This document shows positions 8,569 through 14,640 of a DNA stretch of 41,092 nt, in pieces (within the stretch, counting starts at the first letter, position 1; each line of letters starts with the position of its first letter). The stretch comes from Chryseobacterium gleum (GTDB lineage: Bacteria; Bacteroidota; Bacteroidia; UBA10329). A program made the translations under genes and the position numbers. The stretch lies in assembly GCA_945903645.1 (NCBI GenBank), contig CAMDOM010000030.1:1-41092 (forward strand), read 5' to 3'. The notes beneath the pieces are model-generated. The model ran no database searches. It was not told the origin of the DNA and worked only from the letters and a program-made list of their open reading frames with translations.

Positions 8569-8952
8569 CTATTTCTTCGTCAAAGTTGTGATAGCTAGAG
8601 ATACCCAACCTGCAATGAGAAGAAGGCCACCTATTGGAGTTATTGGTCCTAACAACCGCATAGATTCTAAGCCATGCAAGGGAATTGTTGCCAAACAATA
8701 AATAGAACCAGAGAATAGCAGCACTCCCAGGGAGAATAACCAAAGGGTAACTCTATATGATGCATCTAGTTGTTTGCTAAGAATAGCCACAATAAGCAAA
8801 GCAAGTGAGTGATAGATATGAAAGCGAACCGCTGTTTCGAAACTTGCGAGTTGTGCTTCTGGCAATGCGGATTTGAGCGAATGTGCGCCTAACGCTCCCA
8901 ATATCACGGCCAATGCAGCACTAATTGCTGCTGCTGCTATCCAATTTTTCAT
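8569..8952 (-). CDS. DUF423 family membrane protein (YgdD-like)
   Basis: This encodes a 127-residue protein with four membrane helices and the DUF423 hallmarks: ALAVILGALGAHSLK in the first helix, then FHIYHSLALL, then LLFSGSIYCLA and GPITPIGGLLLIAGW. The family is widespread in bacterial inner membranes and has no firmly established function. The ATG at 8952 (MKNWIAAAA) is preferred to an upstream one because it starts exactly at the first helix. It is a single-gene unit, upstream on the minus strand of pckA but separated from it by about 120 bases and the pckA promoter. Confidence 0.88.
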   Translation of the reverse strand: MKNWIAAAAISAALAVILGALGAHSLKSALPEAQLASFETAVRFHIYHSLALLIVAILSKQLDASYRVTLWLFSLGVLLFSGSIYCLATIPLHGLESMRLLGPITPIGGLLLIAGWVSLAITTLTKK

Positions 8953-9014
8953 AGTGGCGAAGGTAAAGACCGATGTGGGTTGCATAAATGCACCCTATAA
9001 ACTTCTTCAGTTCT

Positions 9015-9963: not shown

Positions 9964-10037
9964 GGCGAGGTAGCTCAGTCGGTTAGAGCGCAGGATTCAT
10001 AACCCTGAGGTCACGGGTTCAACTCCCGTCCTCGCTA
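9964..10037 (+). tRNA. tRNA-Met (CAT)
   Basis: This is a full cloverleaf. The acceptor arm GGCGAGG pairs with CCTCGCT, and the D-arm is AGCTCAGTCGGTTAGAGC. The anticodon loop is TTCATAA, with anticodon CAT. The T-arm is ACGGGTTCAACTCCCGT and the discriminator base is A. CCA is not encoded. The anticodon stem lacks the three GC pairs of an initiator, so it is most likely elongator Met. A lysidine-modified tRNA-Ile with the same anticodon is the alternative. Confidence 0.93.
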
Positions 10038-10180: not shown

Positions 10181-10237
10181 GTATGGTTGGCTTCAGCCCA
10201 ACGAATAAGACGAAGAACTAAAGACCCTCACTCGGGC
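10181..10237. repeat. Palindromic dispersed repeat, copy A
   Basis: This copy opens with the imperfect palindrome GGTTGGCTTCAGCCCAAC, followed by GAATAAGACGAAG and then AAAGACCCTCACTCGGGC. It aligns along its whole ~57 bases with the copy at 12107-12164. The two copies bracket the collagen-like gene pair. The type is unknown; it could be a REP-like element or a mobile-element end. Confidence 0.7.
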
Positions 10238-10294
10238 GGAGTTCGGGTGCACTGGGAAAACCCAATAGTACCTTTCGGTGTGTTTAATGCAATA

Positions 10295-11518
10295 TCACTG
10301 AAACTGAAATACAAACCTGATAGTGGTTTGTGTTCCCGTCTGAGGATTGGTATTAAAACCGGGAGCAGCTTCTAAATCGGTAGTATTTCGCCAAGCGAAC
10401 GTGTTGCCCAACGGACCATCTGCCCCAGCCCACATGTAATTGGTGGTACCACCTTGGGCAAATCCGATGCAGACAGATTCACCAGCAGTAAAGTTCAAGT
10501 TCTGCCCTGATTCTGCAACCAGATTAAATATTTTGGGTCCAGAAACGCCAGAAGCTGTTCCTTGACCAACCAAAATCGACCCCGTATTTGGCCCAACAGA
10601 AGAAGCTGTACCTCTAAAAATGCCTATACGCAGCGGATCTGAACCCTGATCCGACCACATAAGTACCTGAGTTACCGTCATGGTTTGAGGAATAACAGCA
10701 TTAAAGTAATACGACCACGAATTCGGGAGAATGGTTTGCGTTGCGTCAAACAATCCGGGAAGCGGTAACCACGTGCCAATATAGGAAGATCCAGAAGGTC
10801 CTGCGGGTCCTGTTGGTCCAGTAGCACCTTGAAGTCCATTGGCACCAGTTGGACCAATCGGTCCTGCAACCCCCTGGGCACCGGGGGCTCCCGCTGCGCC
10901 TGATATTCCCTGCAACCCAGTTGGTCCTTGAGGACCCTGCACTCCTGTTGAACCAATCGGTCCTATAATTCCTTGTGCACCAGTAGCTCCCGCTACACCT
11001 GCTATTCCTTGAGGACCAGTTGGGCCTGTTAGGCCAATATTACCATCGGAACCCGCAAGTCCCTGCAAACCAGTTGAACCAACTGGACCAGTCGTACCGA
11101 TTAATCCTTGAATTCCTTGGATGCCTTGAGCACCTGTTGGTCCAGCAACTCCAACTAGTCCCTGCGGTCCTGTGGGCCCAGTGTTACCTAGCGCACCGAT
11201 ACACTCCCAATTAAGGAGTTCATGGTTCCAATAACAGAATTGCTTAAGGTCTAGATCATAAACCAATAAGCCATCCGAGGTTGGCGGTAGGATGGTCGTT
11301 GGAGGATTAGCAATGCTAATTCGTTGGATGGTACTCAATCTCGGCATCAAAAATCCCTTGGTTTGAGATGAAACATCAAGGATAGCATTGGGTTCTGGAG
11401 TAATGGTTCCAATACCAATATTATTATTTTGTGCTTGGCTATGATTCAATGTGATTGCAAACATGCCAAAAATGCATCCAGCGATTTTTACAATAGTTAT
11501 TTTAGAATTCATCCTCAC
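10295..11518 (-). CDS. Secreted collagen-like (Gly-X-Y) repeat protein
   Basis: This encodes a 407-residue exported protein. The signal peptide ends at SQAQ (~residue 30). Next is a Bacteroidota surface-protein module at ~31-100, with NIGIGT, ILDVSSQTKGFLMPRLSTI and GLLVYDLDLKQFCYW. This module is common in proteins that also carry tail-fibre-like or trimeric parts. Residues 111-245 are 45 unbroken Gly-X-Y triplets with Thr, Gln or Ala often in Y, as in bacterial collagens that lack hydroxyproline. The last ~160 residues form a beta-rich C-terminal domain that may act as a trimer head. The role (adhesion, filament or surface coat) is inference. It lies 41 bases downstream of a truncated paralogue, and both sit between two repeat copies. 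An in-frame ATG two codons later is an equally good start. Confidence 0.85.
   Translation of the reverse strand: MRMNSKITIVKIAGCIFGMFAITLNHSQAQNNNIGIGTITPEPNAILDVSSQTKGFLMPRLSTIQRISIANPPTTILPPTSDGLLVYDLDLKQFCYWNHELLNWECIGALGNTGPTGPQGLVGVAGPTGAQGIQGIQGLIGTTGPVGSTGLQGLAGSDGNIGLTGPTGPQGIAGVAGATGAQGIIGPIGSTGVQGPQGPTGLQGISGAAGAPGAQGVAGPIGPTGANGLQGATGPTGPAGPSGSSYIGTWLPLPGLFDATQTILPNSWSYYFNAVIPQTMTVTQVLMWSDQGSDPLRIGIFRGTASSVGPNTGSILVGQGTASGVSGPKIFNLVAESGQNLNFTAGESVCIGFAQGGTTNYMWAGADGPLGNTFAWRNTTDLEAAPGFNTNPQTGTQTTIRFVFQFQ
10784..11188 (-). repeat. Collagen-like triplet tract with 51-residue super-repeat
   Basis: Forty-five Gly-X-Y codon triplets (9-base period) are encoded without a break. A longer period is visible: GPTGPQGLVGVAGPTGAQGI recurs 17 triplets later as GPTGPQGIAGVAGATGAQGI. 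This suggests growth by duplication of a ~153-base unit and makes the tract prone to length change. Confidence 0.88.
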
Positions 11519-11559
11519 TTATGTTTTAAAAATAGAATAGGCCGAATGTAACGAAAGCA

Positions 11560-11880
11560 TTAACAAAACTCCATTATGAGAAGATTAGCGGTTGACGTTC
11601 CTGTTTTCGGATTAGTGCTGAACAGGCCATAAAAACTTGATTGCAAGGTGGTTGATGGATACTTTGCTATTACCATCCGCGCAGCAGTATCCATTCTGGA
11701 TGACCAAACACCCTTGGTCTGAATGGATACATCAAGAATTGCCTTGTCATGCGGAGGAGCACCGTTGCTATTAATCCCCACACCAATTTGAGCAACTGAG
11801 TTCTGGGGAATAGAAATCCAATTGAGTCCAAAAATCAGTAACAACTGAAGGTTTTTACTGACAAAACCTAATCTCATCAT
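11560..11880 (-). CDS. Truncated paralogue of the collagen-like protein N-terminus
   Basis: This encodes about 106 residues from the ATG at 11880. A signal peptide ends near NSVAQ. The rest, GVGINSNGAPPHDKAILDVS then QTKGVWSSRMDTAARMVIAK, clearly parallels the N-terminal module of the neighbouring collagen-like protein (ILDVSSQTKG...). It stops at the point where the neighbour has its YDLDLKQFCYW segment, and it has no collagen tract or C-terminal domain. It is probably a duplicated and degraded copy. It could still make a small exported protein. An upstream in-frame ATG at 11937 would add a second hydrophobic stretch and seems less likely as the start. The gap to the next gene is 41 bases, so they may share a transcript. 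Confidence 0.6.
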   Translation of the reverse strand: MMRLGFVSKNLQLLLIFGLNWISIPQNSVAQIGVGINSNGAPPHDKAILDVSIQTKGVWSSRMDTAARMVIAKYPSTTLQSSFYGLFSTNPKTGTSTANLLIMEFC

Positions 11881-12106
11881 GTGTCTCGATAACTGAAGGA
11901 AAACTAACAAAAAATACATTAAGCGAATCATAAACACAAAACATGCCCATGACCACTCGAGTGAGTTTGTGCGAAACTGATATTTGCATCTTTCCCTAGT
12001 ACCGTTTATTCGGTAGCGTCTGCCCTATCCTAAACACCATCTTTGCCCACTTGTTTAAGAATCTACCGAACGCTATTCTAGGAAAATGGTCTTGCGTTTG
12101 GGCTGG

Positions 12107-12164
12107 GTATGGTGGGCTGGAGCCCACCGAATAAGACGAAGGAGGGAAAGACCCTCGCTCGGGC
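12107..12164. repeat. Palindromic dispersed repeat, copy B
   Basis: A perfect palindrome GGTGGGCT-GG-AGCCCACC (12111-12128) is followed by GAATAAGACGAAG and then AAAGACCCTCGCTCGGGC. It matches copy A at 10181-10237 with a few substitutions and one gap. It is in the same orientation as copy A. Confidence 0.7.
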
Positions 12165-12220
12165 AGGTTAGGAAAACTAAGCCCAGCTAAGGGAAAGCTA
12201 CTAGCCTAGTTTGTTTACAC

Positions 12221-12933: not shown

Positions 12934-14640
12934 TTACTCTATCCTCGCAGCCTTCGCCACAGCAGGAGTCGGGCTCTGCACCCAATCGTCCGCATAGAGC
13001 GTGAATAGCCCAGAGGCATCGATGGTGGTGCGGTCGTTTTTGCCATCCATGTAGTCGGCAAGGAGCTGGGCGCGGGCAGAATCGAGGCGTTGAAGGACGA
13101 TAAGGGCGGCATTGGATGCGGCCTTCACTGCTACAGGAACACCACCGCCCAGCTCGGCCCAATGGCCGCCAAGGGTGAGGTGTTTGACAGGAGTGTTGTA
13201 ATGCGCCACTTTGGCTTGCATGTTTTCTTTGCCGGGGCGGGCACCCATCATGGTGCCTTCGCGGTTGCCCGAATAGCGCCAATGGGTGATGGGCGTGGCG
13301 ATGTCGCAATAGACAATGTGGGAGCGCAAACCGGGTGCTACTAACTGCTCCACGCGGTCGATAAGGATGTCGGCATATTCCTGTTTAATTTTCTTGTAGC
13401 CTTCGCCACGCACCAATTCGCCTTTGCTATTGATTTCGGTTTGCCACTGGTTTTCTTGGTGGAAAAACGCTGGGATGTATAAGGTAAGTGTGCCGCAGCC
13501 CTCAGGCGCAAGACTTTTGTCGCGCAGGGAAGGAGCGAGGATGCTGATGTCTGTTTTGTAAGGGTCGCCACTGCTGTGGTCTTCGCGAGTCAATCCACTT
13601 TTGGAGAGATATACCATGTCCTCGCCAAAACCGAGCAATTCGGCTGTGCAATCTAATGCGAGCGAAACAGTGAGTGAGGAGCTGTAGAGTTTAGCGTTTT
13701 TCAGGCTATCCTTCAATTTTTGAGGGATGGCTTTGGGCGGTAACATGCGTTCGTATAATGCTTCCACATCGCAGCAGGCAATGATTTCTTTACCAAATAC
13801 TTCGCTCTGTTCGGGTTTTGCCTTCACCTGAAAACGAACGCCCACAGCAGCGCCTTTCTCCAAAATAACTTCTGATACTTTGGAGCGATAGCTTATTTCT
13901 CCGCCACATGAAGCTACCACATGGGCCAACCATTCGGGAAATACCTGACTGCCTCCAACTGGAGGTCGCTGGTAGTCGCCAAAGTAAGCCCAGCCAATAG
14001 GGACAAGGCAGCTTAAAAGGTCTTGTTCGGAAGCGAAGATGGCATGGAGGCCGGGGTCTTTGAAGAACTTGCTGAGTCCTTTTTTTACGCCTTCATCTCC
14101 AGCATAAAACACGTATTTGATAAACGGAATTACGAATTTGAACTTGCGCAATCCTAATGCAATGCGCTGGAAGAGGTTCATGGTTTCATCTGCGCGCGAA
14201 ATGGTACCCAATACCGAAAACGACCTGCCGATAGTATGTGCAGCTGCAAAGAACTTTTCGATGCCAGCCTTTTCGTGAGGGAAATCGCGAATCATGGCGG
14301 CTTTCATCAAATCGGGATTGCTGGTAAGCAGGTAATCGTGCTTATCGCTGAGGTAGCGCTTAATTTGATGTTGTTGAATGGCCACAGGATGGTCGCTGCC
14401 AATGAGGTCGAATATTCGGGTTACCAATCCTTTTGGCCCAAGCTGGTTGAGCCAATGAATGGCACTATCGAACCGATAATCTAATCTTTTGAAACCAGCC
14501 AAGTAGCCGCCAGGACGACTATCCATCTCCACTACAAACACCTTTTTGCCAGCGCGACTTAGCAGCGCAGCAGCAGTCAATCCGCTAATTCCAGCACCAA
14601 TAATTACTACATCATATTCATTGGTTGTTCCCTTACTCAC
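12934..14640 (-). CDS. CrtI/phytoene desaturase-like FAD-dependent oxidoreductase
   Basis: This encodes a 568-residue flavoprotein. The N-terminal dinucleotide-binding motif VVIIGAGISGLTAAALLSRA (~residues 11-30) is followed by GGYLAGFKRLDYRFDSAIHW. This is the pattern of the carotene desaturase / carotenoid isomerase / retinol saturase group. The C-terminus has the FAD-closing segment LTLGGHWAELGGGVPVAVKA. No phytoene synthase or other carotenoid gene sits beside it. The substrate could therefore be a carotenoid, a retinoid-like compound or another polyprenyl lipid. A TATCCTTG box lies 49 bases upstream, across a very AT-rich leader. The upstream neighbour on the same strand is an ABC exporter that ends 62 bases away. 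The coding region is GC-richer than the gene to its left. Confidence 0.82.
   Translation of the reverse strand: MSKGTTNEYDVVIIGAGISGLTAAALLSRAGKKVFVVEMDSRPGGYLAGFKRLDYRFDSAIHWLNQLGPKGLVTRIFDLIGSDHPVAIQQHQIKRYLSDKHDYLLTSNPDLMKAAMIRDFPHEKAGIEKFFAAAHTIGRSFSVLGTISRADETMNLFQRIALGLRKFKFVIPFIKYVFYAGDEGVKKGLSKFFKDPGLHAIFASEQDLLSCLVPIGWAYFGDYQRPPVGGSQVFPEWLAHVVASCGGEISYRSKVSEVILEKGAAVGVRFQVKAKPEQSEVFGKEIIACCDVEALYERMLPPKAIPQKLKDSLKNAKLYSSSLTVSLALDCTAELLGFGEDMVYLSKSGLTREDHSSGDPYKTDISILAPSLRDKSLAPEGCGTLTLYIPAFFHQENQWQTEINSKGELVRGEGYKKIKQEYADILIDRVEQLVAPGLRSHIVYCDIATPITHWRYSGNREGTMMGARPGKENMQAKVAHYNTPVKHLTLGGHWAELGGGVPVAVKAASNAALIVLQRLDSARAQLLADYMDGKNDRTTIDASGLFTLYADDWVQSPTPAVAKAARIE

What the first reader, a model, noticed from the sequence alone, without database searches (positions are those of the whole stretch)
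10181..12164. Collagen-like gene pair bracketed by two copies of a palindromic repeat
Copies at 10181-10237 and 12107-12164 share a palindrome (GGTGGGCT-GG-AGCCCACC type), then GAATAAGACGAAG and AAAGACCCTC-CTCGGGC. They lie on either side of the collagen-like gene and its truncated paralogue, in the same orientation. This layout could mean the segment moved or duplicated as a unit, or that a REP-like element marks its ends. The palindromes are seen directly; the mobility idea is inference.
Basis: partly seen in the sequence, partly recalled or inferred. Interest (0 to 1): 0.58.

Follow-up and report, generated by a model that had tools for sequence, protein, structure and literature searches.

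The report
Double-hairpin REP repeat, not cargo boundary
The two repeats around the collagen-like gene are ordinary scattered copies of a small two-hairpin DNA parasite whose relatives flank a single-strand-DNA transposase gene; they do not mark the ends of a mobile gene unit, but they help define a poorly described class of such repeats.

Summary
The repeats are real (58 positions, 84% identical, same strand), and the window holds a third, partial, inverted copy at about 11973-12031. They belong to a dispersed intergenic family: 21 distinct confident copies in this genome (22 matches less one contig-end duplicate), 19 matches in G007, one each in G003 and G005, and more elsewhere in the class (22 of 395 genomes). 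Each copy is two tandem hairpins joined by an AATA-type linker. Pairing is supported by compensatory changes (97 double-change cells against 37 in shuffles); hairpin 2 carries a recurrent A.C mismatch. In other families inverted copies sit beside a REP-associated tyrosine transposase (RAYT) gene (8 of 30 RAYT loci) with the published signature of subclass 2.6 (group 5), whose repeats were only called atypical. So these are REPs. The window genome has no detectable RAYT and its copies are the most diverged of four genomes compared. The mobile-unit idea fails: G001 carries the paralogue plus collagen-like pair in the same order, G006 the paralogue plus the start of the collagen-like gene, neither with any repeat. 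The bracketing is two unrelated REP insertions, one a head-to-head doublet.

The parts
10183..10240 (+). REP copy 1 (single, degenerate): imperfect hairpin 1, linker, partly broken hairpin 2
   Evidence: R1 51.2 bits E 5e-9; R2 45.6 bits E 6e-7
12109..12167 (+). REP copy 2: hairpin 1 GGTGGGCT-GG-AGCCCACC, linker, hairpin 2; right half of a head-to-head doublet
   Evidence: R2 72.4 bits, E 4.6e-13, best copy in the genome
11973..12031 (-). Partial REP copy 3, left half of the doublet (3' half of hairpin 2 lost), about 77 bp from copy 2, hairpin-1 sides facing each other
   Evidence: inverted repeat I1; 94% over 31 bases to G000:C8 copy; R1 18.1 bits
12168..12192 (+). Possible third hairpin at the 3' end of and beyond copy 2 (GGTTAG-GAAAA-CTAAGCC), less conserved in the family
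   Evidence: fold; by-eye comparison of 3' flanks
10295..11518 (-). Collagen-like secreted protein, 407 aa; not part of the repeat system
   Evidence: PF01391 3.7e-20
11560..11937 (-). Short paralogue of the collagen-like protein (125 aa), apparently lacking the middle present in the G001 and G006 homologues; not part of the repeat system

Best explanation
The repeat is a REP (repetitive extragenic palindrome) of the kind served by subclass 2.6 / group 5 RAYTs, single-strand DNA HuH-Y1 endonucleases of Bacteroidota. Shown: two tandem hairpins, covarying stems, intergenic dispersal, patchy class-wide distribution, inverted copies directly beside RAYT genes in several genomes. Inferred from the RAYT literature: in single-stranded DNA, e.g. 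at the replication fork, the two hairpins fold; the RAYT recognises them (perhaps through the linker and the A.C mismatch of hairpin 2, in place of the missing GT[AG]G), cleaves and rejoins, and so copies REPs, or head-to-head doublets, into new intergenic sites. In the window's genome the RAYT appears lost, so the copies are now mostly decaying relics. One REP landed beyond the collagen-like gene and a doublet landed upstream of its paralogue; the bracketing is incidental.
For: Covariation on an unfitted MAFFT alignment of 37 copies: 80% of cells paired, 97 double changes vs 37 shuffled, slid controls 33-41% paired; in the 13 copies found by sequence alone helix 2 pairs in 93% of cells. RAYT adjacency: model hits E<0.01 in 8 of 30 RAYT loci, all within about 135 nt of the gene and most within 90; in 6 of 8 one copy on each side in inverted orientation. 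RAYT identity: NF047646 108 and 105 bits vs cut-off 80, PF01797 above cut-off. Subclass 2.6 marks: NHLH/NHFH/NHVH, WQ or WR, Y(L/I)HxNP, SS, H61 to Y143 82 residues (PMC6006769 passages). Genome-level co-occurrence: 17 of 22 repeat-bearing genomes have such a RAYT vs 130 of 373 others, Fisher p 1.3e-4 (phylogeny not corrected). Divergence: mean pairwise identity of copies 0.61 in G000 (no RAYT) vs 0.84 in G270 and 0.74 in G137 (linked RAYT). Gene pair without repeats in relatives.
Against: No RAYT found in the window's own genome by three searches (assembly 95% complete), so the link is by homology only. G003 has one copy and no RAYT (76% complete); G008 has the RAYT subtype but no copy. Of the 22 repeat-bearing genomes 5 (G000, G003, G152, G211, G340) had no RAYT, and several of the 22 rest on one weak match. 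G007's RAYT (C97) has flanks that match the model only at chance level (12.7 bits), although by eye they have the same two-hairpin layout. No transposition was observed and no filled/empty site pair could be aligned. G270 and G137 identities use fetched subsets of capped hits, which favours similar copies.
Confidence: 0.87

Rival explanations
1. The direct repeats bound a mobile or duplicated unit (cassette) carrying the collagen-like pair, moved by recombination between the two copies.
For: Direct orientation; successive copies under 3 kb apart are in the same orientation in 12 of 15 cases over G000 and G007 (one-sided p 0.018, counted by hand, tested); copies cluster (7 pairs under 3 kb vs 0.4 expected); on C22 two 148-bp copies, 95% identical, flank one gene; the gene pair has different neighbours in G000 than in G001 and G006.
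Against: G001 has the tandem pair, and G006 the paralogue plus the start of the collagen-like gene, with no repeat; the two copies differ by 16%; a third inverted copy breaks the simple layout; most copies lie between unrelated genes.
Confidence: 0.06
2. The element is primarily a structured RNA (3' UTR element, sRNA or attenuator) under selection as RNA.
For: Strong covariation; both + copies lie about 55 nt past stop codons.
Against: No fixed orientation to genes: of 39 copies with a called gene on both sides, 16 are start/stop, 9 start/start, 8 stop/start, 6 stop/stop; no Rfam family near threshold; the adjacency to a single-strand DNA transposase is not explained.
Confidence: 0.05
3. Integron-like attC sites or a DDE-type MITE.
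For: Direct-repeat clusters; palindromes.
Against: No integron integrase over the family cut-off in any of 9 genomes (TIGR02249); two consecutive hairpins instead of one long imperfect one; RAYT adjacency.
Confidence: 0.02

Closest known systems
REP-like structures of subclass 2.6 TnpA-REP / RAYT group 5 (Quentin et al. 2018, PMC6006769; abstract passage, section 12 and further passages read)
   Same: RAYT subtype (motifs, length about 179 aa, 82-residue HuH-to-Y distance), Bacteroidetes, no GT[AG]G, structures flanking the gene, copies elsewhere in the genome
   Different: The paper calls them atypical with a weaker secondary structure; here a specific tandem two-hairpin form with a recurrent A.C mismatch and a covarying outer stem is defined. 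Its Table S1 was not seen, so overlap with sequences listed there is possible.
Canonical GT[AG]G REPs and REPINs/BIMEs (Nunvar et al. 2010, PMC2817692, abstract and passages read; REPINs of PMC3116915, search listing only)
   Same: Dispersed intergenic palindromes; inverted pair around the RAYT gene; inverted doublets
   Different: No GT[AG]G foot (0 of 37); two hairpins per unit; about 20 copies found, not hundreds; no RAYT found in this genome
Rfam DUF3800-XI RNA (RF02975)
   Same: Full-length alignment to copy 2
   Different: 15.7 bits against a gathering score of 37.8, E 3.2: chance level

Membership tests
RAYT-associated REP (broad sense) | Hairpin-forming repeat in many intergenic places of the genome | tested here: met
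RAYT-associated REP (broad sense) | Inverted copies flank a RAYT gene | tested here: met
   Met in other genomes of the class: 8 of 30 RAYT loci carry a model hit, 6 with one copy on each side inverted
RAYT-associated REP (broad sense) | Cognate RAYT in the same genome as the window | tested here: not met
   None in G000, a 95% complete assembly; loss of the RAYT, or its lying in the missing part, are possible reasons. Filed as a REP by homology with copies that do flank RAYTs.
Canonical GT[AG]G REP | 5' GT[AG]G at the foot of the hairpin | tested here: not met
   0 of 37 copies in the 6 nt around the foot of helix 1
Subclass 2.6 / group 5 RAYT | NH[LIV]H, WQ, YIH[QN]NP, SS, HuH-Y distance about 82, about 179 aa | tested here: met
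   against the table; small departures (NHFH, YLHNNP, YIHENP, WR). No subclass 2.6 profile was available to score.
Subclass 2.6 REP | Cleavage and joining of the hairpin strand by the RAYT | not testable with these tools
   needs biochemistry
Integron attC | Integron integrase in the genome | tested here: not met
   0 of 9 genomes over the cut-off
Mobile cassette bounded by the repeats | Cargo present only together with the bounding repeats | tested here: not met
   G001 (both genes) and G006 (paralogue and collagen-like start) have the genes without repeats; both contigs end close to or inside the collagen-like gene

The most novel reading that the evidence does not exclude
Subclass 2.6 RAYTs recognise a composite substrate: two tandem hairpins read together, with the A.C mismatch in hairpin 2 and the linker acting as the guide in place of the GT[AG]G tetranucleotide. 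This would be a second recognition code for REP transposases across Bacteroidota.
Probability: 0.5. Interest if true: 0.55.

Novelty: new variant of a known kind. Interest (0 to 1): 0.4.

Why it matters
It gives a testable structural definition to a REP class that the literature read here calls only atypical, ties it to a specific RAYT subtype across several Bacteroidota families, and offers a covariance model with which such repeats can be annotated. It also removes a false mobile-cassette reading of this window.

Tried and rejected
Rejected: repeat-bounded mobile unit; integron/attC; known RNA family; plasmid or phage origin (no plasmid match; the one phage match is to collagen repeats only). 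Y1_Tnp co-occurrence within the genus alone showed no simple correlation; the link became visible only class-wide. A fixed orientation relative to genes was looked for and not found. The site after tRNA-Met was compared in G002, G004, G005 and G008: START gene and tRNA-Met are shared, but none of the other window proteins tested was found in the fetched 13.5-14 kb, so these gave no empty-site test.

Limits: one search scored 150 of 522 first-look candidates in G000, 150 of 600, and only 14 per genome, so copy numbers are lower bounds. (one genome-contig scan with a strict pattern) named one record only. In A3, seven model hits were left out of the 44: two weak plus-strand L022 hits, L034, L099 (duplicate of L094), L104, L090:656 and window:11973. 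The gene calls come from a home-made hexamer script, not a standard gene finder.

Full report
Observation. The two repeats are present as described and far beyond chance: copy 1 is found from copy 2 at E 8e-11 in the whole genome. A third, partial, inverted copy lies at about 11973-12031. It was not in the finding and it changes the picture: copy 2 and copy 3 form a head-to-head doublet about 77 bp apart. The same layout occurs on contig C70 (1963 minus, 2100 plus, about 79 bp apart).

Anatomy. Thirteen copies from G000, G007 and G003 found by sequence alone gave an alignment in which hairpin 1 pairs in 64% and hairpin 2 in 93% of cells. A covariance model from them found 25 matches (E up to 1) in G000, 19 in G007, one each in G003, G005 and (E 0.41, probably chance) G006, and none in G001, G002, G004 and G008. 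A MAFFT alignment of 37 of 44 hits has 80% of cells paired and 97 double-change cells against a shuffled mean of 37; slid controls pair 33-41%. A second model finds 22 matches at E<=0.01 in G000, of which two are the same sequence at the ends of contigs C43 and C102, hence 21 distinct. The unit is: hairpin 1 (about 7-bp stem), an AATA-type linker, hairpin 2 with an outer 3-bp stem, a mismatch and an inner 6-bp stem. The mismatch is A.C in 25 of 37 copies of the genus and in 37 of 39 hits from loci of other families (that second alignment was fitted to the model). A third, weaker hairpin often follows (by eye).

Dispersal. By a home-made gene caller the copies are nearly all intergenic (3 of 41 fall inside a called frame) and lie in all four gene-orientation contexts. 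They cluster: 7 successive pairs under 3 kb against 0.4 expected for 21 copies placed at random.

Identity. Class-wide, 22 of 395 genomes match the model at E<=0.001, with most copies outside the genus in one other family, f20. In G011, G184 and G137 inverted copies bracket a 177-178 aa gene, which is a REP-associated tyrosine transposase by NCBIfam (108 and 105 bits, cut-off 80) and Pfam Y1_Tnp; a profile search of solved structures gives TnpA-REP 4er8 (E 1.8e-4). Searching 395 genomes with this RAYT gave 147 positives. Of the 30 loci fetched, 8 carry model hits at E<0.01, all beside the gene (most within 90 nt, one in G195 and one in G270 somewhat further); 6 of the 8 have one on each side in inverted orientation, G093 has one side only, and G195 has two on one side. 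A model-free scan for a hairpin followed by a mismatch hairpin was positive on both flanks in 8 of 30 loci and on one flank in 10 of 30, against 0 and 3 of 150 shuffles. Some single-flank positives are not obviously of the family, and L159 and L170 were missed although the model finds them. Inverted similarity of the two flanks exceeded all 60 shuffles in 19 of 30 loci. Genome-level co-occurrence is 17 of 22 against 130 of 373 (Fisher p 1.3e-4), not corrected for kinship.

Literature. Quentin et al. 2018 (PMC6006769; section 12 and passages read) describe subclass 2.6: Bacteroidetes, NH[LIV]H, WQ, YIH[QN]NP, SS, about 179 aa, HuH-Y distance 82, flanked by atypical structures without GT[AG]G. 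The RAYTs here agree. I found no description of the tandem two-hairpin form in the listings of searches or in the passages read; the paper's Table S1 was not seen and Bertels et al. 2017 was not held.

The gene pair. The C-terminal domain of the collagen-like protein finds G001 and G006 (3 of 9 genomes with the own genome). In G001 the paralogue (208 aa) sits directly upstream of the collagen-like gene, on the same strand; in G006 the paralogue is followed by the start of the next gene at the contig end. Neither locus holds a repeat with filters off; the best score is 9.5 bits. So the pair is independent of the repeats. The G001 contig starts 189 bases beyond the collagen-like stop and the G006 contig ends inside that gene, so a more distant repeat on that side cannot be excluded; in G000 the repeat lies within 60 bases of the stop. 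The paralogue in G000 lacks a middle section that the homologues have.

Mechanism. Shown: structure, dispersal, RAYT adjacency elsewhere. Inferred: RAYT acts on the folded single strand and spreads REPs and doublets; in G000 the RAYT has been lost (none) and the copies decay. Copies in G000 are the most diverged of four genomes compared (mean identity 0.61, against 0.68 in G007, 0.74 in G137 and 0.84 in G270, on the subsets of copies fetched). G008, with the RAYT subtype but no copies, and G003, with a copy but no RAYT, show that the link is loose; PMC6006769 reads the patchy distribution of these genes as horizontal transfer followed by loss.

Noticed in passing
L086, L087 (G008, G005) after tRNA-Met; window 9964-10037: The tRNA-Met next to the START-domain gene is shared with four relatives, but what follows differs: in G008 frames resembling conjugative mobilisation genes, in G005 frames resembling a restriction-modification locus. 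It may be an integration hotspot; these names are by eye, no family search was run.
   Followed up: partly
L022 1125-1272 and 1956-2103 (G000 contig C22): Two 148-bp direct copies, 95% identical, 831 bp apart, flank a 144-aa putative lipoprotein gene: a local segmental duplication that includes the REP.
   Followed up: no
L021 1931-1989 and flank (G000 contig C72): Hairpin 1 is interrupted by CCCTTCGACCAAGCTTAGGG, with CTGG on both sides, as if another palindrome inserted into its loop; similar TTCGACAAGCTCAGGACAGGC sequence replaces hairpin 1 in several G007 copies.
   Followed up: no
L079 (G000 contig C62 about 8780-9013) and G000 C27 about 14379-14594: Short fragments resembling the C-terminus of integron-type tyrosine recombinases, apparently remnants (87 and 66 bits, below the cut-off of 265).
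   Followed up: no
L166, L168, L171, L176, L182: RAYTs of other families are flanked by differently spelled but similarly built pairs: a hairpin, a linker and a CAC(G/A)A...GCG hairpin, suggesting the two-hairpin form is general.
   Followed up: partly
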